The notes below the pieces were generated by a model that made no database searches, was not told the DNA's origin, and was given only the letters and a program-made list of their open reading frames with translations. A stretch of 41,558 nt of DNA from an uncultured Solirubrobacterales bacterium (GTDB taxonomy: Bacteria > Actinomycetota > Thermoleophilia > Solirubrobacterales > 70-9). The position numbers and the translations under genes were made by a program. The first letter of the stretch is position 1. Each line of letters begins with the position of its first letter. Positions 2,650-37,615 of the stretch are shown here, piece by piece. The stretch spans positions 1 through 41,558 of the forward strand of contig CAITDZ010000129.1 of the NCBI GenBank assembly GCA_903891285.1. Direction: 5' to 3'.

Positions 2650-2666
2650 CTACCTAGAATCAGGCG

Positions 2667-4109
2667 ATGCGGCTCGACCAGATCGCCGGTCGCCTCGAGG
2701 GCGCGAGGATCGAGGGCGACCCCTCGACCGAGGTCTCCGGACTGGCCTACGACAACCGGAAGGTCGAGCCCGGATGGCTCTATTTCTGCGTTCCAGGCTC
2801 AGTGACCGACGGGCACCGTTTTGCACCCGAAGCCGTTTCGGCCGGTGCATCGGCCCTGGTGGTCGATCGCCCCCTTGGGCTAGGGGTTGCCGAGGTGGAG
2901 GTGCCGGACGTCCGTCAGGCGATGGCCCCGATCGCGGCTGAGTTCGAAGCGGATCCGACCGCATCGCTGACCGTGGCCGGGATCACCGGCACCAACGGCA
3001 AGACGACCACCGCCTTCCTGCTCAGGGACCTGCTCGAGGCAGACGGCAGGCAGACCGGTCTGATCGGGACGGTCAGGCAGGTGGTCGGGGGTAGGGATGA
3101 GGAGGTCGAGCGGACCACCCCGGAGTCGGTCGACCTCCAGGCGACCTTCCGTCGCATGCTCGACGAAGGGGATTCGGCCTGCGTGATGGAGGTCTCCTCC
3201 CACGCGCTCGACCAGCACCGGGCCGATTCGATCCGGTTCGACCTTGCCGTCTTCACCAACCTGACCCAGGACCACCTCGACTACCACGGCGACATGGAGT
3301 CCTACTTCCTGGCCAAGCGGCGGCTCTTCGAGATGGGGCCCGGGGTCGCCCTGGTCAATGCCGACGACCCCTACGGCAGGCGGCTGGCCGGGGAATTCGG
3401 CGCAACCACCTTCTCGAGCGCCGGGCAGGAGGCGGATTTCACGGCCCGTGGGATCGAGTTCGACAGGACCGGTTCCCGGTTCACGGTCGACTCCCCGGAT
3501 GGAGAGCTCCAGGTCGAGGTGCCCCTGGCCGGGGCCTTCAACGTCTCTAATGCGCTGGCATCCCTGGCCGGGGCGATCTTGCTCGGGGTCGAGCCGGAGG
3601 CAGCGGTTCGGGGCCTCGCCGGGGCCTCGCCGGTACCCGGCAGGCTGGAGCCGGTCGATGAAGGCCAGGACTTCGCCGTGTTCGTCGACTACGCCCACAC
3701 CCCCGACTCGGTTGCAAACGTCCTCGAGGCGGCCAGGGAGCTGACCCGGAAGCAGCTGATCACGGTGATCGGCGCCGGCGGGGATCGCGACCGGGGCAAG
3801 CGGCCGTTGATGGGCGAGGCGGCCGGGAGGCTGTCCGACCTGACCGTCGTGACCTCGGACAACCCCCGCTCGGAGCCGCCCGAGCGGATCGTCGGGGAGG
3901 TGGCGGCCGGGATCCCGGATGGTTGCGAGGTCGTGATCGAGGTGGATCGGGACGCTGCGATCGGGCGTGCGATCGAGGTGGCGGGCCCGGGGGACACGGT
4001 GGTGATTGCCGGCAAGGGGCACGAACAGGGCCAGGAGTTCGAGGACGGTCGAAAGATCCCCTTCGATGACCGGGAAGTCGCCCGGCGGCACCTCGGGGAG
4101 CGGTCATGA
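2667..4109 (+). CDS. murE: UDP-MurNAc-L-Ala-D-Glu:meso-DAP ligase MurE
   Basis: Mur ligase P-loop ITGTNGKTTTAFLL, VFTNLTQDHLDYHGDMESY, and the DNPR motif (VVTSDNPRSEPP). Confidence 0.95.
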   Translation: MRLDQIAGRLEGARIEGDPSTEVSGLAYDNRKVEPGWLYFCVPGSVTDGHRFAPEAVSAGASALVVDRPLGLGVAEVEVPDVRQAMAPIAAEFEADPTASLTVAGITGTNGKTTTAFLLRDLLEADGRQTGLIGTVRQVVGGRDEEVERTTPESVDLQATFRRMLDEGDSACVMEVSSHALDQHRADSIRFDLAVFTNLTQDHLDYHGDMESYFLAKRRLFEMGPGVALVNADDPYGRRLAGEFGATTFSSAGQEADFTARGIEFDRTGSRFTVDSPDGELQVEVPLAGAFNVSNALASLAGAILLGVEPEAAVRGLAGASPVPGRLEPVDEGQDFAVFVDYAHTPDSVANVLEAARELTRKQLITVIGAGGDRDRGKRPLMGEAAGRLSDLTVVTSDNPRSEPPERIVGEVAAGIPDGCEVVIEVDRDAAIGRAIEVAGPGDTVVIAGKGHEQGQEFEDGRKIPFDDREVARRHLGERS

Positions 4110-5452
4110 TCGACCTCCCGCCCGACCTGATTGCAGATTCCCTCGGTGCCCAGGTCGTCCAGCAGGGCGCATCCGGGGGGCCCACCCGGGCCTCGATCGA
4201 CAGCCGGGCGCTCGAGCCCGGCAACCTCTTCTTCGGCCTCCCCGGCGAGAGGGTCGATGGCGGGGAATTCGCCGGCCAGGCCCTCGACGCCGGCGCCTGG
4301 GGCGTGGTGGTCACACCGGAACGAGCCGCGGAACTGGTCGTCGCTGAGGGGTCAGGGTGGATCTTCTCGACCCCCGATCCACTGCGTGCCCTCCAGGGTC
4401 TGGCCACCGCCTGGCGTCGGGTGCTCGGCGTTCCGGTGCTGGGAATAACCGGCTCGGTAGGAAAGACCAGCGTCAAGGACATCGCCCGGGCGATCCTTCC
4501 TGGACGGGTCCACGCCAACGAGCAGAACCTGAACACCGAGATCGGGCTGCCGCTGACCATCCTCTCGGCCCCCCGAGACAGCGATCTGCTGGTCCTGGAG
4601 ATGGCGATGAGGGGGTTTGGCCAGATCGCCCTGCTTGCCGAGATCGCCGAACCAAACGTCGGGGTGATCACCTGTATCGGGCCGGTCCACGTCGAGCTGG
4701 TCGGCTCGGTCGAGGGGGTGGCGAAGGCGAAGGCCGAGCTGATCGACGGCCTGCCCGAGGACGGCACCCTGGTGGCCCAGGCCGACCCCGGATTGCTCAC
4801 GCCACATCTCGACCGCGCCCCGGCCCTGATCACCTTCGGGGACGGCGGTGACGTCTTCGCCGACGGGGTGGAGGTCTCGGACGGCTCCCTCGAAGCCACC
4901 GTCCACACTCCGGCCGGCCAGGAGCGGTTCTCCTTCCCGTTCTCCGAGCGACACAACCTCGAGAACGCGCTCGCAGCGATCGCGGCCGGAATCGCGCTCG
5001 GGTTCAGCCCGGCGGAGATGTCCGCCGGGACTGGTCGAATACGGCTGTCCAGCCTGAGGGGTGAGCGGGTCGAGCTCCCGGGCGGCGCCGTCTTGATCAA
5101 TGACTGTTACAACGCCAATCCCGTCTCGATGAGGGCTGCGCTGGGGAACCTGGCCTCAGAGCCTGCCGAGACCAGGATTGCCGTCCTCGGGCTGATGGGC
5201 GAGCTGGGGGAGGAGGCCGAGGATTACCACTCCGAGGTCGGGGGAATCGCCCGTGAAGTCGGGATCGACCTGGTGATCGGGGTCGGCCCCGAGGCCGCCG
5301 GTTACGGGCCGGACGTGCTGGTGGACGACCCGTCCGGGGCCGCAGCTGAACTTTCCGGGCGGGACCGGCCGGGGGCCGTCGTGCTGGTCAAGGGTTCCCG
5401 CTCGGCCGGGCTCGAGGCGGTCGCTGAGGCACTCACCGGCAAGGCCGACTGA
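4106..5452 (+). CDS. murF: UDP-MurNAc-tripeptide:D-Ala-D-Ala ligase MurF
   Basis: GITGSVGKTSVKDI P-loop, LEMAMRGFGQIA, INDCYNANPVSMRAAL; ATGA overlap with murE. Confidence 0.95.
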   Translation: MIDLPPDLIADSLGAQVVQQGASGGPTRASIDSRALEPGNLFFGLPGERVDGGEFAGQALDAGAWGVVVTPERAAELVVAEGSGWIFSTPDPLRALQGLATAWRRVLGVPVLGITGSVGKTSVKDIARAILPGRVHANEQNLNTEIGLPLTILSAPRDSDLLVLEMAMRGFGQIALLAEIAEPNVGVITCIGPVHVELVGSVEGVAKAKAELIDGLPEDGTLVAQADPGLLTPHLDRAPALITFGDGGDVFADGVEVSDGSLEATVHTPAGQERFSFPFSERHNLENALAAIAAGIALGFSPAEMSAGTGRIRLSSLRGERVELPGGAVLINDCYNANPVSMRAALGNLASEPAETRIAVLGLMGELGEEAEDYHSEVGGIAREVGIDLVIGVGPEAAGYGPDVLVDDPSGAAAELSGRDRPGAVVLVKGSRSAGLEAVAEALTGKAD

Positions 5453-6432
5453 TGGGCGAGATCGTCATCGGCGGCATGGCGGCGATGCTGCTCTGCCTGT
5501 TCCTCTCGCCGCGGTTCATCCGGATGCTGACCAGGCGGGAGTTCGGCCAGCAGATAAGGGAAGAGGGGCCGACCGAACACCAGGTGAAGGCCGGCACTCC
5601 GACGATGGGTGGCCTGATCATCTTCGTCGCCGTCGCGATCCCCTTCCTCCTCCTCCACGAGGGCGGCAGGGACGGGATAGCTGCCCTGACCGTCTTCGGG
5701 ATTTCCCTGGGTTGCGCTGCGCTGGGCTTCGCCGACGACTACATCAAGATCGTCAAGCAGCGCTCGCTCGGACTCCCGGCCCGTTACAAGCTCCTGGTCC
5801 AGGTCCTGCTGGCCCTCATCCTCTGGTGGGTAGCCCGGCACGAGCTCGGCCTCGAGCCGGAGCTTTTCCTGAGGATCGGCGGCGACGCCAGCATCTACAT
5901 CGGCCCGGTCCTCTACTTCATCCTCGTCTTCCTGGTGATCGCCGGCTCGACCAACGGGGTCAACCTGACCGACGGGCTCGACGGCCTGGCCGCCGGGGCC
6001 AGCGCGATCGTCCTCCTCACCTACACGGCGATCTGTTACGTCACCGTCGGCCAGCAGGACCTCGCGCTCCTGGCCGTCTGCTTCGTCGGGGGGTGTATCG
6101 GCTTCCTCTGGTTCAACGCATTCCCGGCCTCGATCTTCATGGGGGACACCGGATCCCTGGGGTTAGGAGGGGCTATAGGTGCGTTCGCGGTGGTGACCCA
6201 GACCGAAATCCTCCTGATCATCATCGGTGGGATCTTCGTGATCGAGGCGCTCTCGGTCCTGATCCAGGTGTTCAGCTTCCGGACCTTTGGCCGTCGCGTC
6301 CTGATGATGGCCCCGCTCCACCACCACTTCGAGATGATGGCCTGGTCCGAGACCAAGGTGATGCTGCGGTTCTGGATCATCGCGGCGGTCTGTGGTGGGG
6401 TCGGCTTCGCCCTCTACCAGCAGTCGATCTGA
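5452..6432 (+). CDS. mraY: Phospho-MurNAc-pentapeptide transferase MraY
   Basis: GTPTMGGLIIF, FADDYIKIVKQRSLGL, NLTDGLDGLA, MGDTGSLGLGG, APLHHHFE; multi-TM. Confidence 0.97.
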   Translation: MGEIVIGGMAAMLLCLFLSPRFIRMLTRREFGQQIREEGPTEHQVKAGTPTMGGLIIFVAVAIPFLLLHEGGRDGIAALTVFGISLGCAALGFADDYIKIVKQRSLGLPARYKLLVQVLLALILWWVARHELGLEPELFLRIGGDASIYIGPVLYFILVFLVIAGSTNGVNLTDGLDGLAAGASAIVLLTYTAICYVTVGQQDLALLAVCFVGGCIGFLWFNAFPASIFMGDTGSLGLGGAIGAFAVVTQTEILLIIIGGIFVIEALSVLIQVFSFRTFGRRVLMMAPLHHHFEMMAWSETKVMLRFWIIAAVCGGVGFALYQQSI

Positions 6433-6483
6433 GCACGGCTCCCCGGGTGAAGGGATGGCCCGACCCGCGTAGAAGGTGGCTCG

Positions 6484-7857
6484 GTGGAGACCGTCCACCC
6501 ATCGAGGGGCCGACCCCCGCTTCCGGACGGGCCCTTCCTGGTGGTGGGCCTTGCACGCTCGGGCGTCTCGGCGGCCCGGGCCCTGGCCTTTCGGGGTGAG
6601 CAGGTAACGGGGGTCGACGCCGGACGTCCATCCGATCTCACCGGACTCGACGATGCAGGCGTTCCCCATTTTCTCGAGGAAGAGGGCCTGGATCGCCTCA
6701 ATGGCGTCCGGACCGTCGTAAAGAGTCCCGGGGTGCCACAGGACGCAGCCGTGGTCTCGGAGGCACGGAACCGGGGCATCGAGGTAATCGGCGAGCTCGA
6801 GCTCGGCTGGCGGATGGTCGAGGCCCCATTCCTCGCAGTGACAGGCACCAACGGAAAGACCACCACGACCGAGCTGGCGGCCCACCTGTTCAGGGCTGCC
6901 GGTCGTCCGGTCGAAGCGGTCGGCAACGTCGGCAGGCCCCTGACTGCGCTCGCGATCGAATCCGAGCCCGGCGCGACCGTCGTATGCGAGTGCTCGAGCT
7001 TCCAGCTCGAGGACACCTCCGCCTTTGCACCCGAGTGCGCCGTCTTCCTCAACCTCGCGCCCGACCACCTGGACCGCTACACCGACCTCGACGCCTACGG
7101 CAACGCAAAGCTGAGGATCTTCCGCAATCAGGTCGAGGGCGACCTTGCCGTCCTCAACCTCGGTGACCAGTGGCTTGCCGACCGGGAAATCCCCGGTGGC
7201 GCCCGGAGGGTCGGCTTCCTGCCGCCGGGCGAAGGCGACGGTGCAGGAGCGGAGGTGAGGGTCGAGGGTGACGAGATCGAAGTCGAGGGCCGTCCTCTCC
7301 TGCCGGTCGAGCAGGTCGGCCTCATCGGACCACACAACGTCGCAAATGCGATGGCAGCGGCTGCGGCCACCCTCGGTTTCGGGCTTCCTGAAGAGGCGGT
7401 CGCCGAGGGGCTGGCCGGTTTCGCCGGCGTGGCCCACAGGCTCGAACCGGTCGGCGAGGTCGACGGGGTCTTCTGGGTCAACGACTCGAAGGCGACCAAC
7501 GTGACCGCGACCCTTACCGCCCTCGCCTCCTTCCCGGGTGGGACCCGGCTGATCCTCGGTGGTCGCGGCAAGGGGGAGGACTACGGGGCGCTGGCCGATT
7601 CGGTGGCGGAGTCCTGCACCGCCGTCTACCTGATCGGCGAGAACGCCGACGAGATCCGGTCCGCACTGGAGGGGAGCGGCGTCGAGCTGGTCAGGAGCGG
7701 TGACCTGTCGACCGCGGTCGAGGCAGCCGCCCGGGACTCCCAGCCCGGGGAAACCGTCCTCCTCTCCCCGGCATCGGCCAGCTTCGACCAGTTCGGGGAC
7801 TTCGAGGAGCGCGGCGAAAGGTTCAGGAGTCTGGTGGGGGCACTCGATGCCTCGTAG
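6484..7857 (+). CDS. murD: UDP-MurNAc-L-alanine:D-glutamate ligase MurD, GTG start
   Basis: VTGTNGKTTTTELAAHLF, LNLAPDHLDRYTDLDAY, WVNDSKATNVTATLTAL; AGAAGG ribosome-binding site just upstream. Confidence 0.95.
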   Translation: METVHPSRGRPPLPDGPFLVVGLARSGVSAARALAFRGEQVTGVDAGRPSDLTGLDDAGVPHFLEEEGLDRLNGVRTVVKSPGVPQDAAVVSEARNRGIEVIGELELGWRMVEAPFLAVTGTNGKTTTTELAAHLFRAAGRPVEAVGNVGRPLTALAIESEPGATVVCECSSFQLEDTSAFAPECAVFLNLAPDHLDRYTDLDAYGNAKLRIFRNQVEGDLAVLNLGDQWLADREIPGGARRVGFLPPGEGDGAGAEVRVEGDEIEVEGRPLLPVEQVGLIGPHNVANAMAAAAATLGFGLPEEAVAEGLAGFAGVAHRLEPVGEVDGVFWVNDSKATNVTATLTALASFPGGTRLILGGRGKGEDYGALADSVAESCTAVYLIGENADEIRSALEGSGVELVRSGDLSTAVEAAARDSQPGETVLLSPASASFDQFGDFEERGERFRSLVGALDAS

Positions 7858-9199
7858 GGGAAAAGGCTCTCGCGGACCTCGCAAACCGGATGCCCGAACG
7901 GCCCTCCGACCACGTCGGAAGCGACGGTGTCCCCGAAAGACGGAGGACACCCCGGTCGAGTACGGGATCCTCCTGACGGCGACGATGATCCTCTTCGCGC
8001 TCGGCGCGGTGATGGTCTTCTCCGCCTCCTCGACCCGGACGATCCTCGACGACGGCGGGCTCGCCGACAGCGCCTCGTACTTCAGGATGACCCTGATAGC
8101 CGGGGCGATCGGCTTCGTGGCCCTTGCCTGGGCCTCCCGGACGACCCTCGACCGGATCCGCTCGATCACCCCGGCCTTCGTCGGGGTCACTTTTTTCCTC
8201 CTGCTGGTGGTCCTTGTCGCCGGTCGGGAAGTCAATGGCACGACTGGCTGGCTGGTCGCCGGACCGGTGACGATCCAGCCGGCCGAGTTCCTCAAACCGG
8301 CGGTGATCCTCTACGGGGCCTACCTTTTCGCGGATCGTCCCGAACGGGTCCAATCGATCCGGGAGATGGCCCCCTATCTCGGGCTGGTCGGAATGGGTGC
8401 ACTGCTGGTGGTCATCCAGCCGGACTTCGGCAGCGCGATAATCGTGGTCGGCGCCGGACTGATCACTCTCTTCGTCGCCGGAGCCCGGATGCGCGAGCTC
8501 GGGCTGATCGTGGCCCCGGTCGCCGTCCTGGGTCTCCTGGTCACCCTGATCAGCCCCGAACGCAGCGAGCGGATCCTCACCTTCCTCAACCCGGGGGCCG
8601 ACCCTTCGGGTGCCGGCTACCAGGTGCTCCAGGCCGAGATCGCGATCGGATCCGGGGGCATAGGGGGGGTCGGGGTCGGCAACAGCATCCAGAAGGCCCT
8701 CTACCTGCCGGAGGCCCATACCGACATGATCCTCGCGGTGATCGGGGAGGAACTCGGCCTGATCGGGATCACCGTCCTGATCGTCGTCTTCGGTGCCTTT
8801 GCCTTCGCCGGCTTTCGGATCGCACGTGAGGCCAGGGATTCGTACGGCCGTATCCTCGCCGGGGCGCTGACCGGGCTGGTGGTTGCCCAGGCCGCTCTCA
8901 ACATGTACGCGGTGATGGGGATGGCCCCACTGACGGGTGTTCCGCTGCCGCTCGTCTCCTACGGGAACAACAGCCTGATCCTCACACTACTCGCGGTCGG
9001 GTTGTTGCTCAATGTGGCCAAGGGAGGGGCGTTGTCGAGTCGACCCCGAAAGGCCGGGGGGCCCGGTGCGAAACTGAGGGTGATCGAAGGTGATGGAGAG
9101 CGAACGAACGAACTCGGAGCGAGGATCCGGCGGACGCCGCGTCCTGATCGCGGCCGGCGGCACGGCCGGGCACGTCGTGCCCGCCCTGGCCGTGGCTGA
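7847..9199 (+). CDS. ftsW: Peptidoglycan glycosyltransferase FtsW (SEDS family)
   Basis: ORF track opens at 7700, but the likely start is the in-frame ATG at 7847 (MPRRGKGSRG) overlapping the end of murD. SEDS motifs NGTTGWLVAGPVTIQPAEFLKPA, AHTDMILAVIGEELGLIG, GVPLPLVSYGNNSL. Confidence 0.93.
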   Translation: MPRRGKGSRGPRKPDARTALRPRRKRRCPRKTEDTPVEYGILLTATMILFALGAVMVFSASSTRTILDDGGLADSASYFRMTLIAGAIGFVALAWASRTTLDRIRSITPAFVGVTFFLLLVVLVAGREVNGTTGWLVAGPVTIQPAEFLKPAVILYGAYLFADRPERVQSIREMAPYLGLVGMGALLVVIQPDFGSAIIVVGAGLITLFVAGARMRELGLIVAPVAVLGLLVTLISPERSERILTFLNPGADPSGAGYQVLQAEIAIGSGGIGGVGVGNSIQKALYLPEAHTDMILAVIGEELGLIGITVLIVVFGAFAFAGFRIAREARDSYGRILAGALTGLVVAQAALNMYAVMGMAPLTGVPLPLVSYGNNSLILTLLAVGLLLNVAKGGALSSRPRKAGGPGAKLRVIEGDGERTNELGARIRRTPRPDRGRRHGRARRARPGRG

Positions 9200-10223
9200 A
9201 GTCCTGGCGACGGACGGTTGCGAAGTCTCGTTCGCGGGGGCCCGCGGTCGAACCGAGGCCGACCTGGTGCCGGAAGCCGGTTACCCGATCGAGTTGCTCG
9301 ACCTCTCGGGGATCGATCGAAGGAACCCGGTCAAGGCGGCTCGGGCACTCCTCATGGCGGCCCGGGCCCTCCCTGAGGCCGGTCGACTCCTCGATCGGAC
9401 GAAGCCATCGGTGGTGGTCGGTGGTGGCGGTTTCGTCGCCGGACCGGTGGGACTGGCCGCTGCACGGAGGGGAATCCCCCTCGTGCTCACCGAGGCCGAC
9501 CGCAGGCTCGGGCTGGCAAACCGACTGCTTCGCCGGAGGGCAGCCACCCTCTGCCTGGCCTTCCCGATCGAGGGCATCGAAGGAAGCGGGGTCGAGGTCA
9601 CCGGCCGCCCAGTCGAGCGATCGGTGATCGAGGGCGATCGGGCGGCTGCGAGGCGGCGATTTGGAATCGCCCCGGAAAGGAAGTGTCTCCTCGTGACGGG
9701 GGGGAGCCTGGGGGCCCTCTCGATCAATACCGCCTCGGTTCAGGCCTTCGGTGAGGCATCCGCGCGTGATTTCGACGTGATCCACATAACCGGTCGGCGC
9801 GACCACTCCGAAGTCGAGGCCCTGCTCCAGCGGGTCGACGATTCGACCGGGTACCACCTGCTCGAGTACGAACCGAATCTCGGCGACTCGCTGGCTGCCT
9901 CGGACCTCGCCCTATCGCGTTCCGGGGGCTCGGTCTTCGAGCTGGCCGCCACCGGCAAGCCGGCGATCCTGATCCCCTATCCGCATGCCTCGGCCGACCA
10001 CCAGACGGCCAATGCCAAGTGGATGGAGGAGGCCGGCGCGGCCGTCGTCCTCTCCGACGGCGACTTGACCCCCGAGCTGATCGCCGGGTCGGTCAGCGGA
10101 CTCTTCGGGGATCCGGGCCGCCTCGAAGGGATGTCGGAGGCGTCCCGTTCACTGGCCCGTCCGGACGCGGCCGAGCGGGTGGCCCGGGCGGTCGAGCGGT
10201 CAGCGTCGGAGGGCCGCCGATGA
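9090..10223 (+). CDS. murG: UDP-GlcNAc:lipid I GlcNAc transferase MurG (GTG 9090 or ATG 9093)
   Basis: RVLIAAGGTAGHVVPALAVAE, VVVGGGGFVAGPVGLAA, LLVTGGSLGALSIN, YPHASADHQTANA; located between ftsW and murC. Confidence 0.93.
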   Translation: MMESERTNSERGSGGRRVLIAAGGTAGHVVPALAVAEVLATDGCEVSFAGARGRTEADLVPEAGYPIELLDLSGIDRRNPVKAARALLMAARALPEAGRLLDRTKPSVVVGGGGFVAGPVGLAAARRGIPLVLTEADRRLGLANRLLRRRAATLCLAFPIEGIEGSGVEVTGRPVERSVIEGDRAAARRRFGIAPERKCLLVTGGSLGALSINTASVQAFGEASARDFDVIHITGRRDHSEVEALLQRVDDSTGYHLLEYEPNLGDSLAASDLALSRSGGSVFELAATGKPAILIPYPHASADHQTANAKWMEEAGAAVVLSDGDLTPELIAGSVSGLFGDPGRLEGMSEASRSLARPDAAERVARAVERSASEGRR

Positions 10224-11545: not shown

Positions 11546-12477
11546 GTTCGTCCGGCAATCGGCACCTTCCGGCCGGGGTCGAGGCGAATCGGCCCCTTGC
11601 GAGATTCACCACGGTGAGGACCGGTGGCACGGCCGACTTCCTGGCGCAGCCCGGGACGACTGCCGACCTGGTCGAAGTTCTCGGGTGGGCAAAGGCGGAA
11701 GGGCTCGTGGTCGGCCTGATCGGCTCGGGGTCGAACCTCCTCGTCGCAGACGACGGATTCCGGGGCCTCGCGATCAAGCTCGACGGCGATTTCTCGATGA
11801 TCGAGAGGGACGGGGAGGTGGTCTCGCTCGGTGGGGCGGTGCGACTGCCCTCGGCCGCCGCCAAGACGGCCGCCTGGGGCCTCGCCGGCCTCGAGTTCGG
11901 GGTCAACATCCCCGGCACGGCCGGCGGGGCGGTCCGAATGAATGCGAATGCATACGGAGGGAAGTTGGCCGACGTGATCGACTCGGTCGAGCTCTGCGAT
12001 GCCGACGGAATCCACCGGGTCGGCCCCGAGGACCTCGACTTCGCCTATCGGAGTTCGAACATTGGACCGGACCAGGTCGTCTCCAGGGTCGACTTCCGAC
12101 TCTCTCCCGACAGCCCCGAGGCGATCCGCGAACGCCTTGCCGAGATGCGGGCCTGGCGAAGGGAGACCCAGCCCTCCGGGATCAAGACCTTCGGGTCGAC
12201 CTTCAAGAACCCGGAAGATCCGAAGGCAGGGGAACGGAGCGCCGGACAGCTGCTCGACGAGGCCGGGTGTCGGGGCCTTCGGATCGGTGGGGCCAGGTTC
12301 TCCGAGGTCCACGCCAACTTCGTCGAGAACATGGGTGAGGCGACCACTGCCGACGTGATCGCCGTGATGTCGGCAGGTCGGGAACGGGTCGCGGAGGAAT
12401 TCGGGGTGGCCCTCGAGCCGGAGGTGCAGGTTCTGGGCGAGGTCGTCTGGCCGGAAGGTTGGGAAGTTGGCCGGTAG
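11542..12477 (+). CDS. murB: UDP-N-acetylenolpyruvoylglucosamine reductase MurB
   Basis: FTTVRTGGTADF, GLIGSGSNLLVADDGF, GVNIPGTAGGAVRMNANAYG, KTFGSTFKNPEDPKAG; ATGA overlap with murC. Confidence 0.95.
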   Translation: MSSSGNRHLPAGVEANRPLARFTTVRTGGTADFLAQPGTTADLVEVLGWAKAEGLVVGLIGSGSNLLVADDGFRGLAIKLDGDFSMIERDGEVVSLGGAVRLPSAAAKTAAWGLAGLEFGVNIPGTAGGAVRMNANAYGGKLADVIDSVELCDADGIHRVGPEDLDFAYRSSNIGPDQVVSRVDFRLSPDSPEAIRERLAEMRAWRRETQPSGIKTFGSTFKNPEDPKAGERSAGQLLDEAGCRGLRIGGARFSEVHANFVENMGEATTADVIAVMSAGRERVAEEFGVALEPEVQVLGEVVWPEGWEVGR

Positions 12478-13285: not shown

Positions 13286-13331
13286 CCGGCCCGATCGGTC
13301 GCTCAGGGCCCGGAGGCTGCACCTGAAGTAG

Positions 13332-13421: not shown

Positions 13422-13439
13422 GGGCCATCTTCACACCAA

Positions 13440-14587: not shown

Positions 14588-14610
14588 ATCCCCGGCGGCA
14601 GCCGGCCGAC

Positions 14611-14622
14611 TAGGATCGGCCA
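14611..14622 (+). promoter_or_regulatory. -10-like TAGGAT with N6 to GTG of gcvT (candidate leaderless promoter)
   Basis: TAGGAT 14611-14616, cggcca, GTG at 14623. No good -35 seen. Confidence 0.5.
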
Positions 14623-15702
14623 GTGACCGACCAGGGCGAAGAGCCCCGAAAGACCCCCCTCCACGCAGCCCACCTGGAAGCCGGGGCACGGATGGTTCCC
14701 TTCGCCGAGTGGGAGATGCCGGTCCAGTACGACGGCATCCGGGAGGAACACGTCGCCGTCCGGACCCATGTCGGGATGTTCGACGTCTCCCACATGGGAA
14801 GGATCGAGGTCGAGGGTCCGGCCGCTGTCGACCTGCTGATGGCGACGCTCAGCAACGACGCCTCGGCGATCCCGATCAATGGTGCCCAGTACACGCTGAT
14901 GCTCGATGCCGAGGGAGGGGTGGTCGACGACCTGATCGCCTACCGGCTCGGCAACGACCGCTTCCTGCTGGTCACCAACGCTGCCAACCACGCGGGAGAC
15001 CTGGCGATCCTCGGAGCGGCATCCCGGCAGCGTGATGCCTTCGTTCGGGACATCTCGGCCGACCTGGCGATGATCGCGGTTCAGGGGCCGAACGCACGTG
15101 AAGTGGTCGGTTCGGTGCTCGGGGTCGGTCTGCCGGCCCGAAACGGGATACGGGTCGACCAGATCGGCGGGCGACCGGCCTTCATCTGTGGGACCGGTTA
15201 CACGGGGGAGGACGGGGTCGAACTCATGGTGCAGCCCGAGGTCGCGATCCCGATCTGGAACGAGCTGATCGATGCAGGGGTGGTCCCCTGTGGCCTCGGA
15301 GCACGCGACACGCTTCGACTCGAGGCCTGCTTCCACCTCCACGGCAATGACCTCGGTCCGGAGATCGACCCGATCACGGCCGGACTCGCCTGGGCCTGTC
15401 GTACTGGTGGCGGCTACACGGGGGCCGAGCGGGTCGAGGCCCTGCGTCGGGAGGGGCCGGGACGAAAGCTGATCCCCCTCGTGATCGAGGGGGATGGGAT
15501 TCCCAGATCTGGCAACGAGGTACTCGACGGGGAGTCTGTAGTCGGGGTGGTGACCAGCGGAACCCTCTCCCCCTCGACCGGCAAGGGGATCGGGCTCGCG
15601 CTGGTGGAAGCGAATCTCACCGAGAAGGGCACCCCGCTGACCATCGACGTGCGGGGGAAGCGTCGGGCCGCACGCGTATCCTCGAAGCCCCTGTTTTCGT
15701 AG
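14623..15702 (+). CDS. gcvT: Glycine cleavage system aminomethyltransferase (T protein)
   Basis: MFDVSHMGRIEVEGP, GAQYTLMLDAEGGVVDDLIAYR, GTGYTGEDGVEL. Confidence 0.95.
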   Translation: MTDQGEEPRKTPLHAAHLEAGARMVPFAEWEMPVQYDGIREEHVAVRTHVGMFDVSHMGRIEVEGPAAVDLLMATLSNDASAIPINGAQYTLMLDAEGGVVDDLIAYRLGNDRFLLVTNAANHAGDLAILGAASRQRDAFVRDISADLAMIAVQGPNAREVVGSVLGVGLPARNGIRVDQIGGRPAFICGTGYTGEDGVELMVQPEVAIPIWNELIDAGVVPCGLGARDTLRLEACFHLHGNDLGPEIDPITAGLAWACRTGGGYTGAERVEALRREGPGRKLIPLVIEGDGIPRSGNEVLDGESVVGVVTSGTLSPSTGKGIGLALVEANLTEKGTPLTIDVRGKRRAARVSSKPLFS

Positions 15703-20137: not shown

Positions 20138-20149
20138 TACGCTTGGCTC
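20138..20149 (+). promoter_or_regulatory. -10-like TACGCT with N6 to GTG of scpA (candidate leaderless promoter)
   Basis: TACGCT 20138-20143, tggctc, GTG at 20150. Confidence 0.45.
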
Positions 20150-20905
20150 GTGGCAATTGGGTCCGGACTTGCCGACCTAGACCTCGATCTCGACGTCTTC
20201 GCGGGACCATTCGACCTGCTCCTGACGATCGTCCTTCGGGAGGAGCTGGACCTGCTCGAGGTCGAGCTGGGGGAGGTCGTCTCGGCCTACGTCGAGACTC
20301 TCTCCGAGCGGGGTGAGATCGACCTCGAGGCGACCACCGAGTTCCTGCTGCTGATCGCCTCCCTGCTCGAGCTGAAGTCCCGCCTGATGCTCCCTCAAGC
20401 CGACCCGGAGCTCGAAGGGATGGAGCCCGAAGAGGCTGTCGAGGAGCTGATCGCCCGAATGCTCGAGTACCGGAAGTTCAAGGAGGCCTCGGCCGAACTG
20501 ATCTCGATGCTGGATGCCGCAACGCCGTTCCTCTACCGGGGCGCTCCGCTCCCCCCGGAGCTTCGGCGGGTCGCGGTGGAGGCGGCAACCCAGGCGTACG
20601 ACCCCAACATCCTCAGCTCGGCGATCGGGGACCTGCTGACCCCGCCGGAGGAGATCGAGATGCCACGGATCCCGGTCGCGATCTCCCTGAGGAGGAGGGT
20701 CTCCGCCCTGAGGGCAGCGCTCGCGGCCCGAGCCTCACTCGACTTCGATGAGAGCTTCGGGGCCGAGGCCCGCGAGGTCCAGGCGGTCACCCTGCTTGCC
20801 CTGCTCCAGCTCCACGGGCAGGGAGAGGCAACCTGGGACCAGGATGAGATCTGTGGACCGATCACGATCATCAGGTCGGGAGAGGGTGCCGGTGTCCCTG
20901 CCTGA
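20150..20905 (+). CDS. scpA: Segregation and condensation protein A
   Basis: FAGPFDLLLTIVLREELDLLEVELGEV, LLLIASLLELKSRLMLP. Confidence 0.93.
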   Translation: MAIGSGLADLDLDLDVFAGPFDLLLTIVLREELDLLEVELGEVVSAYVETLSERGEIDLEATTEFLLLIASLLELKSRLMLPQADPELEGMEPEEAVEELIARMLEYRKFKEASAELISMLDAATPFLYRGAPLPPELRRVAVEAATQAYDPNILSSAIGDLLTPPEEIEMPRIPVAISLRRRVSALRAALAARASLDFDESFGAEAREVQAVTLLALLQLHGQGEATWDQDEICGPITIIRSGEGAGVPA

Positions 20906-27205: not shown

Positions 27206-27224
27206 GGACTCCGATCCCTGGCCG

Positions 27225-27237
27225 TAGAGTGCCGCCG
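27225..27237 (+). promoter_or_regulatory. -10-like TAGAGT with N7 to ATG of the cmk leader ORF
   Basis: TAGAGT 27225-27230, gccgccg, ATG 27238. Confidence 0.45.
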
Positions 27238-27273
27238 ATGACTTCGACCGACCGGGGAGCAGCGAAATGGTGA
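27238..27273 (+). promoter_or_regulatory. Putative leaderless upstream ORF MTSTDRGAAKW* overlapping the cmk start
   Basis: ATG ACT TCG ACC GAC CGG GGA GCA GCG AAA TGG TGA; stop lies inside the first codons of cmk (ATG 27267). Confidence 0.4.
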
Positions 27274-27905: not shown

Positions 27906-27912
27906 GCGCCTG

Positions 27913-29217: not shown

Positions 29218-29231
29218 TCGGGCGATCCGAA

Positions 29232-29245
29232 TAGGGTTGACGACC
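29232..29245 (+). promoter_or_regulatory. -10-like TAGGGT with N8 to GTG of the metK leader ORF
   Basis: TAGGGT 29232-29237, tgacgacc, GTG 29246. Confidence 0.4.
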
Positions 29246-29281
29246 GTGATCGACGCCACTGCCACGGAGGAACCACGATGA
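29246..29281 (+). promoter_or_regulatory. Putative leaderless upstream ORF (V/M)[10 protein letters not shown] with ATGA overlap onto metK
   Basis: GTG ATC GAC GCC ACT GCC ACG GAG GAA CCA CGA TGA; TGA 29279-29281 overlaps metK ATG 29278-29280; GGAGGAA serves as metK RBS inside it. Confidence 0.4.
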
Positions 29282-30507
29282 GCGATCCCTCACCGCTCGC
29301 CGAAGGCGAGCACCTGTTCACGTCGGAATCGGTTACCGAGGGCCATCCGGACAAGATGGCCGATCAGATTTCCGACGCCGTCCTCGACGCCTGCCTCGAG
29401 CAGGATCCCGGGGCCCGGGTGGCCTGCGAGACCCTGGTCAACACGGGCATGGCCGTCGTCTCCGGCGAGCTCTCGACCTCGGCGACGATCGACATACCAT
29501 CAATAGTCAGGGACACGGTTTCGTCGATCGGCTATGACGATGGCGACCTGCGCTATTCGGCCGACTCGATCGCGGTCCTCGTCTCGATGGACGAGCAATC
29601 GCCGGAGATCGCCCAGGGGGTCGATGCCGGCCTCGAGATCCGGGCCGGCGGCTCGGACGAGGAGTACGACTCTGCCGGCGCGGGTGACCAGGGAATGATG
29701 TTCGGCTACGCGACCGCCGAGACGGACGCCCTGATGCCACTCCCGATCCTGCTCGCCCACCGTCTTGCCGAGAGGTTGGCCGAGGCGCGCAAGGAGGGGG
29801 CGGTCGACTACCTCCGGCCAGATGGAAAGACCCAGGTGACGATCAGGTATCGGGACGGCGAGCCGGTCGCGATCGAGCGAATCCTCGTCTCGACCCAGCA
29901 CGACCCCGACGTCGATCTCGAGACGCGGATCCGCCCTGATATCTGGGAATCGGTCGTCCTCCCGGTACTCGACACGGGCTTCGGCGAGATGGCGGATCGC
30001 GATGCCCTCTACGAGTCGCTCCTGGTCAACCCGACCGGATCCTTCGTGATCGGAGGCCCCGTTGGGGACGCCGGGCTGACCGGGCGCAAGATCATCGTCG
30101 ACACCTACGGAGGCGCAGCTCGCCACGGTGGGGGAGCCTTCTCCGGCAAGGATCCCTCGAAGGTCGATCGCTCGGCCGCTTACGCCGCCCGCTACGCGGC
30201 GAAGAACGTGGTTGCTTCCGGGCTGGCTCGCAGGTGTGAGGTCCAGGTCGCCTATGCGATCGGCGTTGCCCGACCCGTATCGGTGATGGTCGACACCTTC
30301 GGTACCGGAAGGATCCCGGACCGCGAGATCGCCGGGCTGGTCACCGCCGAGTTCGACCTTCGACCGGCGGCCTTCAGGGAGTACCTCGACCTGAACCGGC
30401 CGATCTATCGCCAGACCGCTTCATACGGCCACTTCGGCCGGGACGGTGAGGACTTCACCTGGGAGAAGACGGACCGGGCCGAAAGCCTCTCGGGTTCGAG
30501 CGACTAG
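29278..30507 (+). CDS. metK: S-adenosylmethionine synthetase
   Basis: [64 protein letters not shown]. Confidence 0.97.
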
Positions 30508-30522
30508 ACGGGCCAGGAACCC

Positions 30523-32142
<1,620 letters not shown>

Positions 32143-32144
32143 GG

Positions 32145-34172
32145 TCAGCCTCCCCGGACCTGTTTCCTCGCCGCCTCGACCACTGCTTCGACCGTGAAGC
32201 CGAAGTGCGTCCTGAGGTCCCGGAAAGGTGCAGAGGCACCGAACCCATGCATCGCGATCATCGCTCCGTCGGTCCCGACGAAGCGATCCCACCCGAGGGG
32301 TGAGGCCTGCTCGATCCCGACCCGCGCGGTTATCCCCGGAGGGAGAACCGAGTCCCGGTACTCGGTGTCCTGACGGTCGAAGGCTTCCCAGCAGGGAAGG
32401 CTCACCACCCTCGCCCCGATCCCTTCGCCCGCGAGGACCTCGGCAGCCTCCACCGCGAGGTGTACCTCGCTCCCCGTGGCGATGAGGATCACCTCGGGGG
32501 CACCATCGGGATCGGAGAGCACGTAACCGCCCCGCATCAGCCCCTCGGCAGGGGCAAGGACGGAACGATCCAGGTTTGGAACGTCCTGCCGGGTCAGGAC
32601 GAGGGCGGTCGGCCCGTCGTTCCGCAACAGCGCGTACTTGAGTGCCTCCGAGGTCTCGTCGCCATCCGCGGGGCGGACTACGTCGAGTCCAGGGACCGCC
32701 CTTAGCGAGGGCAACTGCTCGACTGGCTGGTGGGTCGGTCCGTCCTCACCGAGGCCGATCGAATCGTGGGTCAGCCAATGGATGACCGGCAGCTCCATCA
32801 GGGCCGACAGCCTGATTGCCGGCCGGGCGTAGTCCGAGAAGATCAGGTAGGTCGACCAGACAGGGCGCATGTCCCCGAGGGCAAGACCGTTGGAGAGGGC
32901 CGCCGACTCGTGCTCCCTGACCCCGAGGTGGAGGCCCTGGCCGGTTCGTTCGCCAGGCTCGAAGTTCCCCGATACCTCCGGGTCGAGCCCGCTCGAGGCC
33001 GATCCGGTCAAGTCGGCCGACCCGCTCATCAACCAGGGGACGTTCGGGGCGACCGAACGCAGGGCCTTCTGGGCAGCCTTTCGGGTGGCCGTCTCCGAGC
33101 CGGCCTCGAAGCTCGGCAGTTCGGAGTCCCACCCCTCGGGCAGGGATCGCTCGAGCATCATCGCCAGCATCTCCCGCTGCTCGGCAGGCGCCTGCTCGAG
33201 CCTTGCCTGCCACGCAGTCCTCAGTTCGGCACCTCGTTTCCCGATCCCATCCCGGAAGAACTCCGGGACCTCGTCGGGGACGAGGAAGTGGGCATCCTCG
33301 GGCCAACCGTAGGCCTCCTTGGTAAGTCGGGTCTCCTCTTCGCCCAGGGGTGAGCCATGAACTCCAGCCGTATCGACCTTGTTCGGTGAGCCGAAGCCGA
33401 TCTTGCTGTGGACGATGATCAGGCTCGGTCGATCGGCCTCCGCCTTGAAGCCGTCGACCGCGGAGCTGAAGGCCTCGACGTCGTTGGCATCCTCCACGAC
33501 AGAGACGGCCCAGCCCGAGGCCCGGAATCGCTCTCCGACGTCATCGGAGAAGGTGAGGTCCGTACTCCCGTCGATCGAGATCTGGTTGCTGTCGTAGATC
33601 CAGCAGAGGTTCGAGAGCTGCTGATGGCCTGCGAGCGAGACGGCCTCCTGCGAGACCCCCTCCATCAGATCGCCGTCGGAGCAGATCACGTAGACGTCGT
33701 AATCGAAGAGGTCCTGACCGAAGGTCGCCTTCTTCCAGAGCCCCGCCATCGCCATGCCGACCGAGGTTGCGACGCCCTGGCCGAGCGGACCCGTGGTCGT
33801 CTCAACCCCGACGGTCAGGTGGGACTCGGGGTGGCCCGGTGTGGGGGATCCGAGCTGGCGGAAGTTCTTGATGTCCTCGAGCGAGATGGCCGGACTGCCG
33901 TCCGCCCTGGTCACCCCGGTGAGGTGGATCATCGAGTAGAGGAGCATCGAGGCGTGACCGGCAGAGAGCACGAATCGATCTCGGTCTGGCCACCCCGGGT
34001 CGCTCGGGTCGTACCTCAGATAGTTCTGCCAAAGCCTGACCGTGAGCGGTGCCAGCGCCATTACGGCGCCGGGGTGGCCCGAGTTGGCACGGTCTATCGC
34101 ATCGATCGAAAGTGTCCGGACCGTGTCGGCTGCCAGCTGCTCGGTATCACTCGGTCCGCCCGGCTCGTTCAC
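32145..34172 (-). CDS. tkt: Transketolase (proposed start GTG 34172; ORF track uses ATG 34181)
   Basis: RANSGHPGAVMALAPLTVRLW, GPLGQGVATSVGMAMAG, ICSDGDLMEGVSQEA, LGEDGPTHQPVEQLPSLRA. Confidence 0.93.
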   Translation of the reverse strand: MNEPGGPSDTEQLAADTVRTLSIDAIDRANSGHPGAVMALAPLTVRLWQNYLRYDPSDPGWPDRDRFVLSAGHASMLLYSMIHLTGVTRADGSPAISLEDIKNFRQLGSPTPGHPESHLTVGVETTTGPLGQGVATSVGMAMAGLWKKATFGQDLFDYDVYVICSDGDLMEGVSQEAVSLAGHQQLSNLCWIYDSNQISIDGSTDLTFSDDVGERFRASGWAVSVVEDANDVEAFSSAVDGFKAEADRPSLIIVHSKIGFGSPNKVDTAGVHGSPLGEEETRLTKEAYGWPEDAHFLVPDEVPEFFRDGIGKRGAELRTAWQARLEQAPAEQREMLAMMLERSLPEGWDSELPSFEAGSETATRKAAQKALRSVAPNVPWLMSGSADLTGSASSGLDPEVSGNFEPGERTGQGLHLGVREHESAALSNGLALGDMRPVWSTYLIFSDYARPAIRLSALMELPVIHWLTHDSIGLGEDGPTHQPVEQLPSLRAVPGLDVVRPADGDETSEALKYALLRNDGPTALVLTRQDVPNLDRSVLAPAEGLMRGGYVLSDPDGAPEVILIATGSEVHLAVEAAEVLAGEGIGARVVSLPCWEAFDRQDTEYRDSVLPPGITARVGIEQASPLGWDRFVGTDGAMIAMHGFGASAPFRDLRTHFGFTVEAVVEAARKQVRGG

Positions 34173-34179
34173 GCGCGGC

Positions 34180-34185
34180 ATCCTA
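34180..34185 (-). promoter_or_regulatory. -10-like TAGGAT (minus strand) with N7 to GTG of tkt
   Basis: Plus-strand ATCCTA 34180-34185; 7 nt to GTG 34172-34170; overlaps the ORF-track ATG. Confidence 0.4.
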
Positions 34186-34210
34186 ACTGCCGGAGGCGGC
34201 GGTCTGCCGC

Positions 34211-34693
34211 TCAGCCGAGGCCCGGATCGGTGCCCCAGTGGCCACCCTGGCGGACCGACTCGACGACACCCCCCGGATCGGCCACGCCGCCAAAGACGAA
34301 CAGTGATCCACCCGAGCCGGCAGCGGTGTCGAAGTCGACGTCACCGATCCCCAGGACCCTCTCGATGGGGGATTGGGAGTAGGAGACGTTCTGGACCCTG
34401 GCGAGGCGGGTCTCCTCCACCTCACGGGAGAGGACGCCTCGGCTCAGGTGGAGCCGACGGTCGGTGACCGTGTAGGAGGTCGTGCTCCGCTTGGCTATCC
34501 CGGCCAGGACGGTGACTCCGAGCACGATTACGACGACCAGGAAGAGGTCGACGAAACCCCGGCCGAGGACGCTCAGTAGCAGCGCGAGGAATACGGCCAG
34601 GGCGGCGCCCTTCAGGTAGAACGGAATGATCGCCCGCCACGAAGGGTGGCCCTCGTAGATGACCGTTTCACCGGCGTCCAGGGAGAAGCCCAT
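34211..34693 (-). CDS. Membrane protein with bacterial PH-like (bPH2/YdbT-type) domain
   Basis: DAGETVIYEGHPSWRAIIPFYLKGAALAVFLALLLSVL, two TM segments, TSYTVTDRRLHLSRGVLSREVEETRLARVQNVSYSQSPIERVLGIGDVDFDTA. Confidence 0.85.
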   Translation of the reverse strand: MGFSLDAGETVIYEGHPSWRAIIPFYLKGAALAVFLALLLSVLGRGFVDLFLVVVIVLGVTVLAGIAKRSTTSYTVTDRRLHLSRGVLSREVEETRLARVQNVSYSQSPIERVLGIGDVDFDTAAGSGGSLFVFGGVADPGGVVESVRQGGHWGTDPGLG

Positions 34694-34699
34694 TGGCCG

Positions 34700-34705
34700 A
34701 GGATA
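34700..34705 (-). promoter_or_regulatory. -10-like TATCCT (minus strand) with N6 to ATG of the PH-domain gene
   Basis: Plus-strand AGGATA 34700-34705; cggcca; ATG at 34693. Confidence 0.5.
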
Positions 34706-34733
34706 GCCGTGGATCCCCGTCCGGGCACATCCT

Positions 34734-34745
34734 TACCTTGACCAA
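34734..34745 (+). promoter_or_regulatory. -10-like TACCTT with N6 to GTG of priA
   Basis: TACCTT 34734-34739, gaccaa, GTG 34746. Confidence 0.5.
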
Positions 34746-36938
34746 GTGAGAGTCGCCAGGGTCGAGCCGCTGACGACGGCCCGCGCCCTGCGGGGGCCGT
34801 TCGACTACCTGCTTCCGGAGGGTTTCGAGGGGGTGAAGGCAGGAACCGTCCTGGAAGTCCCCTTCGGTCGGCGCAGGGTGGTCGGAGTCGTCATCGAGGT
34901 GGCCGGTTCCTCCGATTTCCCCGAGGACCGTCTGCTCGAGCCGGTCAGGCAGCTCGGTCAGGGGACGACCCCGGAGCTGGTCGATATCGCCCTCGAGGTT
35001 GCCGACCAGTACTGCTCAACCCCGGCGCGGGCACTGGGACTGGTCCTCCCCCCGGGGACCGGCGTGGGAGGCAGGCGGGTCAAGGAGCGGACCGAGAGGA
35101 CCTGCCGGCTCACCCCAGAGGGTTCCCAGGCACTCGAGGACGGCGCCCGGCTCGGAGCGAAGCAGAGGGTTGCACTCGAGATTCTCGGGGGAGGGGCGAT
35201 GAGCACGGCACGGCTGGCCGGAGAGGCCGGGGTCTCTTCCTCTACCGTCAAGCGCCTCGCCGACCGGGGTCTTGTCGAAATTGGTGAGAGGCAGGTCCGG
35301 CGCGAACCCGAGCACCGGGAGGTCGGCAGCGAGAGCGATGGCGCACCGCCTCTGACCGAGGCCCAGGCAGCCGCCCTGGAAAGGATCGAGCGGGCTTTGG
35401 AGAATCGGAGCGGTGGAGGCCCTGCAACCTTCCTCCTAGCCGGCGTGACCGGCTCCGGGAAAACGGAGGTCTACCTCGGCGCGGTCGAGCATGTCCTCTC
35501 CCGGGGTCGCTCGGCGATCGTCCTGGTCCCCGAGATCGGCCTCACCCCCCAGGCGGTCAGTCGTTTCCGGGCGAGGCTCGGCGACACCGTCGCGGTCCTC
35601 CATTCGGGCCTCACCGCAGGTCAGCGCCACGACGAATGGGAGCGCCTTCGCAGGGGGGAAGCGACGGTCTGCGTTGGACCTCGCTCGGCAGTCTTCGCCC
35701 CACTCGAGGACATCGGCCTGATCGTGGTGGATGAGGAACACGACCCCTCCTACAAGCAGGAGTCCGATCCCCGCTACGACGCCCGCCGGGTCGCCGAGAT
35801 GAGGGCCCGCCGGAACGGTGCCGTGCTCGTGCTGGGTACCGCAACCCCACGCCCCGAAACCTGGCTCTCGGCAGAGAGACTCGAACTTCCCGACCGCGTG
35901 GACGGACTTGGGATGCCCCCGGTGGAGGTCGTCGACATGCGCGATGCCCCACCGGGGACCGGGGCGCTCCATCCCTCGACCATCGATGCGCTCGCGACCG
36001 TGAGGGAACGGGGCGAGAAGGCAATAGTGATGATCAACCGAAGGGGCTTCTCCCCATGGCTCACTTGCAGGACGTGCGGGCACCACTGGGGCTGTCCGAA
36101 CTGCGACGTCTCGCTGATCGTCCACCGTGACCCGGACGTACTGGTCTGCCACCACTGCGCCCATCGCGAACCGGTCCCATCCTCCTGCCCCGAGTGTTCG
36201 GGTACCACCCTGGCCAGGAGCGGTGCCGGCACCGAGAGGATCGAGCTCGAACTGAGGGATCTGATGGCTCCGATGGAGGTGTTCCGGCTCGATGCCGATA
36301 CCGGGGCCTCGGGAGCCCACGGCGAGATCCTCGAGCGCTTCGATCGGGCTCCGAGCGCAATCCTGGTTGGTACCCAGATGGTCGCCAAGGGCCATGACTT
36401 TCCCGAAGTGACCCTGAGCGTCGTCCTCGATGCCGATGCGACCCTTCGGTTCCCGGATTTCAGGGCCGAGGAGAGGACTTTCTCGCTGGTGACCCAGCTG
36501 GCCGGGAGGAGCGGTCGGGGTCCGGCCGGAGGGCGGGTGATAGTCCAGACCCTCGCCCCCGGGGCGCCGGCGATTGCCAGGGCCTCCTCACACGACTCGC
36601 CTGGATTCCTCGAGGGGGAGCTGGAGAGAAGGAAGGCCCTGGACTACCCCCCCTATTCCGACCTGATCAGGCTCGTCTTCGCCTGTGAGGACGAGACCAC
36701 GGTCTCTGCGCTCGCCGACCGGGCTGCCCGCGAGATCGCCGACCGGCTGCCGCCCGGCTCGGCACTGCTCGGTCCGGCCCCGATGTTCCGTGCCCGCGGC
36801 CGATACAGGATGAGGATCCTGGTCAAGACCGACGATCGGTCCGGTGCAGTCCCGGCAGTCAGGGGAGTCGTCGAGGAGCTCGGCTCGGAAGGCGCGCTTC
36901 GCGGAGTCGTCCTCAGCGTCGACGTCGATCCCCAGTAG
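34746..36938 (+). CDS. priA: Primosomal protein N' / replication restart helicase PriA
   Basis: LAGVTGSGKTEVYLGAV (Walker A), VVDEEHDPSYKQESDPRYDARRVA, eight-Cys zinc module CRTCGHHWGCPNCD...CHHCAHREPVPSSCPEC. Confidence 0.95.
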   Translation: MRVARVEPLTTARALRGPFDYLLPEGFEGVKAGTVLEVPFGRRRVVGVVIEVAGSSDFPEDRLLEPVRQLGQGTTPELVDIALEVADQYCSTPARALGLVLPPGTGVGGRRVKERTERTCRLTPEGSQALEDGARLGAKQRVALEILGGGAMSTARLAGEAGVSSSTVKRLADRGLVEIGERQVRREPEHREVGSESDGAPPLTEAQAAALERIERALENRSGGGPATFLLAGVTGSGKTEVYLGAVEHVLSRGRSAIVLVPEIGLTPQAVSRFRARLGDTVAVLHSGLTAGQRHDEWERLRRGEATVCVGPRSAVFAPLEDIGLIVVDEEHDPSYKQESDPRYDARRVAEMRARRNGAVLVLGTATPRPETWLSAERLELPDRVDGLGMPPVEVVDMRDAPPGTGALHPSTIDALATVRERGEKAIVMINRRGFSPWLTCRTCGHHWGCPNCDVSLIVHRDPDVLVCHHCAHREPVPSSCPECSGTTLARSGAGTERIELELRDLMAPMEVFRLDADTGASGAHGEILERFDRAPSAILVGTQMVAKGHDFPEVTLSVVLDADATLRFPDFRAEERTFSLVTQLAGRSGRGPAGGRVIVQTLAPGAPAIARASSHDSPGFLEGELERRKALDYPPYSDLIRLVFACEDETTVSALADRAAREIADRLPPGSALLGPAPMFRARGRYRMRILVKTDDRSGAVPAVRGVVEELGSEGALRGVVLSVDVDPQ

Positions 36939-36975
36939 AGGCCATCGAGGGGGTGGGGCGAGGTCGATCGGCGGC

Positions 36976-36988
36976 TACACTCGACCCG
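36976..36988 (+). promoter_or_regulatory. -10-like TACACT with N7 to ATG of def
   Basis: TACACT 36976-36981, cgacccg, ATG 36989. Confidence 0.45.
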
Positions 36989-37615
36989 ATGAGTGAGGAA
37001 GACCGGATCGAGCCTGAAGAGGAGGCCGAGGAGAGCGCTGAGGAGCAGGCGGAGAGGGCCCGCCGACGCGAGGCTGCGATGTCTCGCATCGTCCGTTTCG
37101 GCGACCCTCTTTTGAAGAGCCGGGCCTCGGAGATCACTGAGTTCGGCACCGACCTGGAAGCCGAGGCAGAGGAAATGGTCAGCCTGATGCGGGACGCGAT
37201 CGGCTGTGGGCTCGCCGCCAACCAGGTCGGCCGCCTGAGGAGGCTCCTGGTGATCGAGCCACCCGGCGAGGAGGCCCCGACCGCCCTGGTCAACCCGGAG
37301 GTCGAGTGGCTCTCGGAGGAGCTCGATGAGATGCAGGAGGCCTGCCTCAGCATTCCGGGAATCGCCGTCGACGTCGCTCGTCCGGTCGCTGGACGCTTCA
37401 CCGGGCTCGACCTTTCGGGTGCTGAAGTCCGACTCGAGCTCGAGGGCCTGGCTGCGCGAATCCTCCAGCACGAACTCGATCACCTTGATGGGATCCTGAT
37501 CCTCGACAGGGCCGCCCCCGACCAGCGCAAGGCGGCTCTCGGGGCACTCCGCAGGGGTGAGACCTGGTCCCCTCCCGAGACCGACGGGGAAGCGACCGAA
37601 GAAGCCCTCGCTTGA
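36989..37615 (+). CDS. def: Peptide deformylase
   Basis: GCGLAANQVGRLRRLLVI, EACLSIPGI, LQHELDHLDGILILDR; start trimmed from ORF 36953. Confidence 0.95.
   Translation: MSEEDRIEPEEEAEESAEEQAERARRREAAMSRIVRFGDPLLKSRASEITEFGTDLEAEAEEMVSLMRDAIGCGLAANQVGRLRRLLVIEPPGEEAPTALVNPEVEWLSEELDEMQEACLSIPGIAVDVARPVAGRFTGLDLSGAEVRLELEGLAARILQHELDHLDGILILDRAAPDQRKAALGALRRGETWSPPETDGEATEEALA

What the first reader, a model, noticed from the sequence alone, without database searches (positions are those of the whole stretch)
2655..36989. Window-wide leaderless-mRNA architecture: TANNNT placed 6-8 nt before start codons
At most apparent transcription-unit starts I find a -10-like hexamer at near-constant distance from a start codon: murE TAGAAT-N6-ATG; gcvT TAGGAT-N6-GTG; scpA TACGCT-N6-GTG; priA TACCTT-N6-GTG; PH gene (-) TATCCT-N6-ATG; def TACACT-N7-ATG; tkt (-) TAGGAT-N7-GTG; cmk leader TAGAGT-N7-ATG; metK leader TAGGGT-N8-GTG. 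If A and T are each about 16% here, TANNNT is expected at roughly 0.4% of positions, so such regular placement is unlikely by chance. It would put the transcription start on the first base of the start codon. Leaderless transcripts are known to be common in actinobacteria such as mycobacteria. No consistent -35 is visible.
Basis: partly seen in the sequence, partly recalled or inferred. Interest (0 to 1): 0.7.

Follow-up and report, generated by a model that had tools for sequence, protein, structure and literature searches.

The report
Leaderless genes in an uncultured actinobacterium
Many genes in this actinobacterial genome have their promoter box placed so that the messenger RNA should begin exactly at the start codon, a "leaderless" layout already well known in other actinobacteria such as mycobacteria, so the pattern is real but of a known kind.

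Summary
All nine TANNNT/start pairs exist at the stated spacings. The window is one contig of a 1.75-Mb MAG in the Solirubrobacterales (Thermoleophilia).

In a test that does not depend on chosen starts, TANNNT ends 6-7 nt before 67 of 881 in-frame ATG/GTG/TTG but only 5 of 1,079 out-of-frame ones in 0.51 Mb of the same genome (Fisher P ~1e-18). The peak recurs in five further genomes of the order, is strongest at divergent genes and weak inside operons, requires RTG, excludes Shine-Dalgarno (SD) sites, and has no -35 consensus. Streptomyces-type DNA shows the same peak; Clostridia do not.

Seven cases (murE, gcvT, scpA, priA, PH gene, def, tkt) are best read as leaderless genes. The other two (cmk, metK) are leadered genes with SD whose transcripts start with an 11-codon leaderless mini-ORF ending in a 4-nt overlap with the gene. 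Such "coupled" uORFs exceed chance in the order (13 vs 2.3).

This matches published actinobacterial biology (Zheng 2011; Cortes 2013; Shell 2015), extended here to Solirubrobacterales. Transcription start sites are inferred, not measured.

The parts
2655..2669 (+). murE: TAGAAT -10 (2655-2660), 6-nt gap, ATG start 2667; no SD; internal promoter in the dcw cluster, 17 nt after the upstream stop
14611..14625 (+). gcvT: TAGGAT -10, 6-nt gap, GTG start 14623
   Evidence: the overlapping ARAGORN tRNA-Lys is not supported by Rfam
20138..20152 (+). scpA: TACGCT -10, 6-nt gap, GTG 20150, the only ATG/GTG/TTG found in the open frame near the coding boundary
34734..34748 (+). priA: TACCTT -10, 6-nt gap, GTG start 34746; TANNNT 6-11 nt before the start in 10 of 10 Solirubrobacterales homologues read
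34691..34705 (-). PH-domain gene: TATCCT -10, 6-nt gap, ATG start 34693; gap 6 in all 7 homologues read although the hexamer varies; divergent from priA
36976..36991 (+). def: TACACT -10, 7-nt gap, ATG start 36989; L028 homologue has TAGAAT-N7-ATG
34170..34185 (-). tkt: TAGGAT -10, 7-nt gap, GTG start 34172 (the ATG at 34181 lies inside the hexamer); same TAGGAT-N7-GTG in G010 (L165)
27225..27273 (+). cmk leader: TAGAGT -10 (27225-27230), predicted leaderless uORF ATG 27238-27273 (MTSTDRGAAKW) ending GTGA on cmk codon 2; SD-like GGAG upstream of cmk start 27267/27270
   Evidence: L026 also has a uORF ending on the cmk start
29232..29281 (+). metK leader: TAGGGT -10 (29232-29237), predicted leaderless uORF GTG 29246-29281 ([11 protein letters not shown]) ending ATGA on metK ATG 29278; SD GGAGG lies inside the uORF
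   Evidence: uORF kept only in near-identical G008 (L107)

Best explanation
The hexamers are -10 elements of promoters of the housekeeping type. RNA polymerase starts 6-8 nt downstream of the -10 box, which at about a third of transcription-unit starts in this genome and its order places +1 on the A or G of the start codon (or within a few nt of it). The mRNA is leaderless, has no SD, and is probably translated by ribosomes that recognise a 5'-terminal AUG/GUG. Other transcription units have the same -10 30-100 nt upstream of the gene and often use an SD. In a small subset, including cmk and metK here, the leadered transcript itself begins with RTG and opens a short leaderless uORF that ends on the start codon of the SD-bearing gene, probably coupling the two. 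Shown here: spacing, frame dependence, codon dependence, genomic context, SD exclusion and conservation. Inferred: the transcription start sites, leaderless translation, and coupling.
For: Gap 6/7 before in-frame starts 37/30 of 881 against 2/3 of 1,079 out-of-frame starts in the same genome; the same peak in G010, G018, G020, G026, G028 (Fisher P 1e-18 and 7e-27 for own and G010). The codon at that position matters: ATG 105, GTG 69, TTG 16 and CTG/ATC/GTC/GAC/GCG 1-3 per 1,000 in-frame codons. Divergent genes 30.5% against internal genes 6.1% (P 7e-25). Strong SD near any candidate start in 9 of 271 leaderless genes against 78 of 218 genes with a distal -10. PH gene gap 6 in 7 of 7 homologues and priA gap 6-11 in 10 of 10, with variable hexamers. 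Positive control (Streptomyces, Micromonospora, Frankia, Cellulomonas) shows the peak; Clostridia do not. TANNNT near 12 bp upstream of the start is the published leaderless signature (PMC3160421), experimentally matched in M. tuberculosis (PMC3898074).
Against: No RNA data exist for this MAG. Gaps of 8-11 nt are also enriched, so some transcripts may carry 1-5 nt leaders. Part of the SD exclusion is mechanical, because the hexamer occupies the SD position (the any-start comparison avoids this). murE, gcvT and scpA upstream conservation could not be read. A few individual assignments (roughly 4 of 67) are expected to be chance.
Confidence: 0.93

Rival explanations
1. Chance matches of a loose motif to start codons in a few reader-selected places.
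Against: Out-of-frame starts and non-start codons in the same regions show the motif at background rate; the pattern is conserved in homologues.
Confidence: 0.01
2. TANNNT there is a translational or coding signal (for example an atypical ribosome-binding site, or stop-codon TAG/TAA debris of the upstream gene) rather than a promoter.
For: Many hexamers begin TAG, and SD is absent at these starts.
Against: The signal is strongest at divergent genes, where no upstream stop codon is expected, and weak inside operons; TAC/TAT hexamers are common; genes with the same hexamer farther away often carry SD.
Confidence: 0.03
3. The transcripts are mostly near-leaderless, with 1-5 nt leaders, and are not strictly leaderless.
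For: Excess at gaps 8-11, and a flat 6-11 profile in G028.
Against: Sharp onset and maximum at gap 6-7 in the window's genus, and dependence on RTG at that position.
Confidence: 0.15
4. The cmk and metK leader ORFs are chance RTGs at a purine +1 and are not translated.
For: The metK uORF is absent from other genus members outside G008; peptides are not conserved.
Against: Gap-6-9 uORFs with 1- or 4-nt overlap number 13 against 2.3 +/- 1.5 in shuffles, 0 of 200 reaching 13; coupled leaderless uORFs are experimentally supported in mycobacteria (PMC4633059).
Confidence: 0.35

Closest known systems
TA-led (leaderless) genes of Actinobacteria, Zheng et al. 2011 (PMC3160421)
   Same: TANNNT near 12 bp upstream of the start codon, weak middle positions in high-GC genomes, coexisting with SD-led genes
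   Different: That paper's text does not name Rubrobacter or Conexibacter, though its genome set may have included them; the present lineage is a Solirubrobacterales MAG
Leaderless transcriptome of Mycobacterium tuberculosis and M. smegmatis (Cortes 2013 PMC3898074; Shell 2015 PMC4633059)
   Same: TANNNT -10, about a quarter of transcripts leaderless, ATG or GTG required at +1, coupled leaderless small ORFs in front of annotated genes
   Different: There proven by TSS and ribosome mapping; here inferred from sequence. RbpA (Pfam PF13397) is not found in any of 41 genomes of this order, while CarD-like proteins are present in most relatives

Membership tests
Actinobacterial leaderless gene architecture | TANNNT -10 ending 6-8 nt before an in-frame start codon, above chance | tested here: met
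Actinobacterial leaderless gene architecture | Enriched at transcription-unit starts, depleted inside operons | tested here: met
   30.5% divergent against 6.1% internal
Actinobacterial leaderless gene architecture | No Shine-Dalgarno at these starts | tested here: met
   0 of 271 at the leaderless start; 9 of 271 at any candidate start
Actinobacterial leaderless gene architecture | RTG (ATG/GTG) required at the 5' end | tested here: met
   TTG strongly under-represented, P 2e-10; other codons at background
Actinobacterial leaderless gene architecture | TSS at or within 5 nt of the start codon | not testable with these tools
   no RNA data for this MAG or its order
Coupled leaderless small ORFs (Shell 2015) | RTG at the TSS opening a short ORF whose stop overlaps the downstream start codon, above chance | tested here: met
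   13 against 2.3 +/- 1.5, 0 of 200 shuffles; +1 position inferred
Coupled leaderless small ORFs (Shell 2015) | Translated | not testable with these tools
   needs ribosome profiling or reporters

The most novel reading that the evidence does not exclude
Solirubrobacterales, an actinobacterial lineage in which RbpA is not detected, use the full mycobacterial-type programme: RTG-dependent leaderless initiation from -35-less promoters, and a class of leaderless mini-uORFs whose 4-nt overlap drives or gates translation of SD genes such as cmk and metK. This would make the programme old in the phylum and independent of RbpA.
Probability: 0.45. Interest if true: 0.45.

Novelty: new member of a known kind. 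Interest (0 to 1): 0.3.

Why it matters
It extends a gene-start architecture measured in mycobacteria, corynebacteria and streptomycetes to a mostly uncultured class. It also gives a practical rule for correcting gene starts in such MAGs, and suggests that leaderless initiation and coupled leaderless uORFs are old in the phylum and do not need RbpA.

Tried and rejected
The first gene model converged poorly and a later one appeared to pick the wrong frame in the GC-richest genomes; it was retrained from the own-genome model. Two ARAGORN tRNAs (9414-9504 +, 14594-14670 -), one overlapping the gcvT promoter, were rejected because Rfam finds no RNA family in the window. The idea that metK itself is leaderless was rejected: genus relatives have a TAGGCT-like -10 about 70-90 nt upstream and an AAGGAGA-type SD. 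A -35 search found no consensus. Literature searches for leaderless genes in Thermoleophilia, Conexibacter, Rubrobacter and Acidimicrobiia found no TSS study in the held library.

Full report
What was checked. A regular-expression search found all nine hexamer-gap-start strings at the stated spacings. In the window, 7 in-frame starts have gap 6 or 7, with about 0.5 expected from out-of-frame starts.

Where it comes from. The window is contig C129 of a 1,750,735-base MAG in 242 contigs, 87% complete. The nearest named MetK homologues are Solirubrobacterales MAGs (75 and 69% identity), so the organism most likely belongs to Thermoleophilia, Actinomycetota.

Start-independent test. A codon-usage gene caller was trained on the held DNA. 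For every gene, all in-frame ATG/GTG/TTG near the coding boundary were compared with out-of-frame ones in the same zone. In 0.51 Mb of the own genome, gaps 6 and 7 gave 37 and 30 in-frame hits of 881 starts, against 2 and 3 of 1,079 out of frame; the onset is sharp, with 1 hit at gap 5 (Fisher P 1e-18). G010 (same genus) gave 60 and 42 of 1,205, against 5 and 4 of 1,490. G018, G020, G026 and G028 (other genera and families of the order) also show an in-frame excess from gap 6 on. Streptomyces-type loci show it too; Clostridia do not.

Signature of leaderless initiation. The peak depends on the codon: ATG 10.5%, GTG 6.9%, TTG 1.6%, all tested non-start codons 0.3% or less. That parallels the RTG requirement found experimentally in M. 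smegmatis (PMC4633059). It is found at 30.5% of divergent genes, 18.2% of same-strand genes with at least 25 nt of spacing and 6.1% of tightly packed genes. No strong SD occurs at the 271 leaderless starts (partly mechanical), and only 9 of 271 such genes have a strong SD at any candidate start, against 78 of 218 genes whose -10 lies farther upstream. There is no -35 consensus.

Conservation of the window's cases. PH gene: gap 6 in all seven homologues read, with hexamers TATGCT, TATGTT, TAGGCT, TATCTT and TACGCT. priA: TANNNT 6-11 nt before the start in all ten homologues. tkt: TAGGAT-N7-GTG in G010. def: TAGAAT-N7-ATG in L028. Some of these loci are the same genomes seen through different collections (L027 and L127 carry identical sequence), so the independent number is slightly lower. 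The homologues of murE, gcvT and scpA could not be read. For scpA the GTG at 20150 is the only ATG/GTG/TTG in the open frame near the coding boundary.

The two 'leader' cases. cmk and metK have SD-like sites and a -10 36-40 nt upstream of their ATG; in relatives, metK is clearly leadered. In both window leaders the RTG at the predicted +1 opens an 11-codon ORF that ends in a 4-nt overlap with the gene start (GTGA on cmk codon 2, ATGA on metK). Across 260 leadered TANNNT promoters in six genomes there are 13 such arrangements, against 2.3 +/- 1.5 in dinucleotide shuffles of the leader (0 of 200 reach 13). As a second control, 13 fall in the four gaps 6-9 against 17 in the 28 gaps 12-39. Mycobacteria have the same class, called 'coupled' small ORFs (PMC4633059). 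The metK uORF is not conserved outside the closest genome, so a peptide function is unlikely; coupling or reinitiation is the likelier role, at moderate confidence.

Relation to known biology. TANNNT about 12 bp upstream of the start as the mark of leaderless genes, with more than 20% of genes in Actinobacteria, was published in 2011 (PMC3160421) and agrees with TSS mapping in M. tuberculosis, where 26% of genes with a primary TSS are leaderless (PMC3898074). A later gene-start paper treats leaderless transcription as characteristic of Actinobacteria (PMC9581028). No paper found in the held library maps TSSs in Thermoleophilia. One difference from mycobacteria: the RNA-polymerase-binding protein RbpA is not found by its Pfam model in 41 genomes of the order, nor in 9 further members of the class, while short CarD-like proteins are present in most relatives.

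Verdict. It is a new lineage of a known kind of gene architecture.

Noticed in passing
window 27238-27273 and 29246-29281: Leaderless mini-uORFs with 4-nt overlap onto cmk and metK; the class is above chance in the order (13 against 2.3).
   Followed up: yes
window 34693-34746: PH gene and priA are divergent leaderless genes with only 52 nt between their start codons and 28 nt between their -10 boxes, so their upstream promoter regions must overlap; the divergent pair recurs in relatives (L165, L027, L028, L121).
   Followed up: partly
window 9414-9504 (+) and 14594-14670 (-): ARAGORN tRNA-Pro and tRNA-Lys calls lie in or overlap protein genes and have no Rfam support: probable false positives.
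   Followed up: yes
G000 and 40 relatives: RbpA (PF13397) not detected in any of 41 Solirubrobacterales genomes, and found in only 14 of 150 genomes sampled across the phylum; CarD-type proteins of about 200 aa are present in most relatives but not seen in the incomplete own genome.
   Followed up: partly
G028 (loci L230-L235): Gap distribution is flat from 6 to 11 nt rather than peaked at 6-7, hinting at looser start-site selection or short leaders in that family.
   Followed up: no
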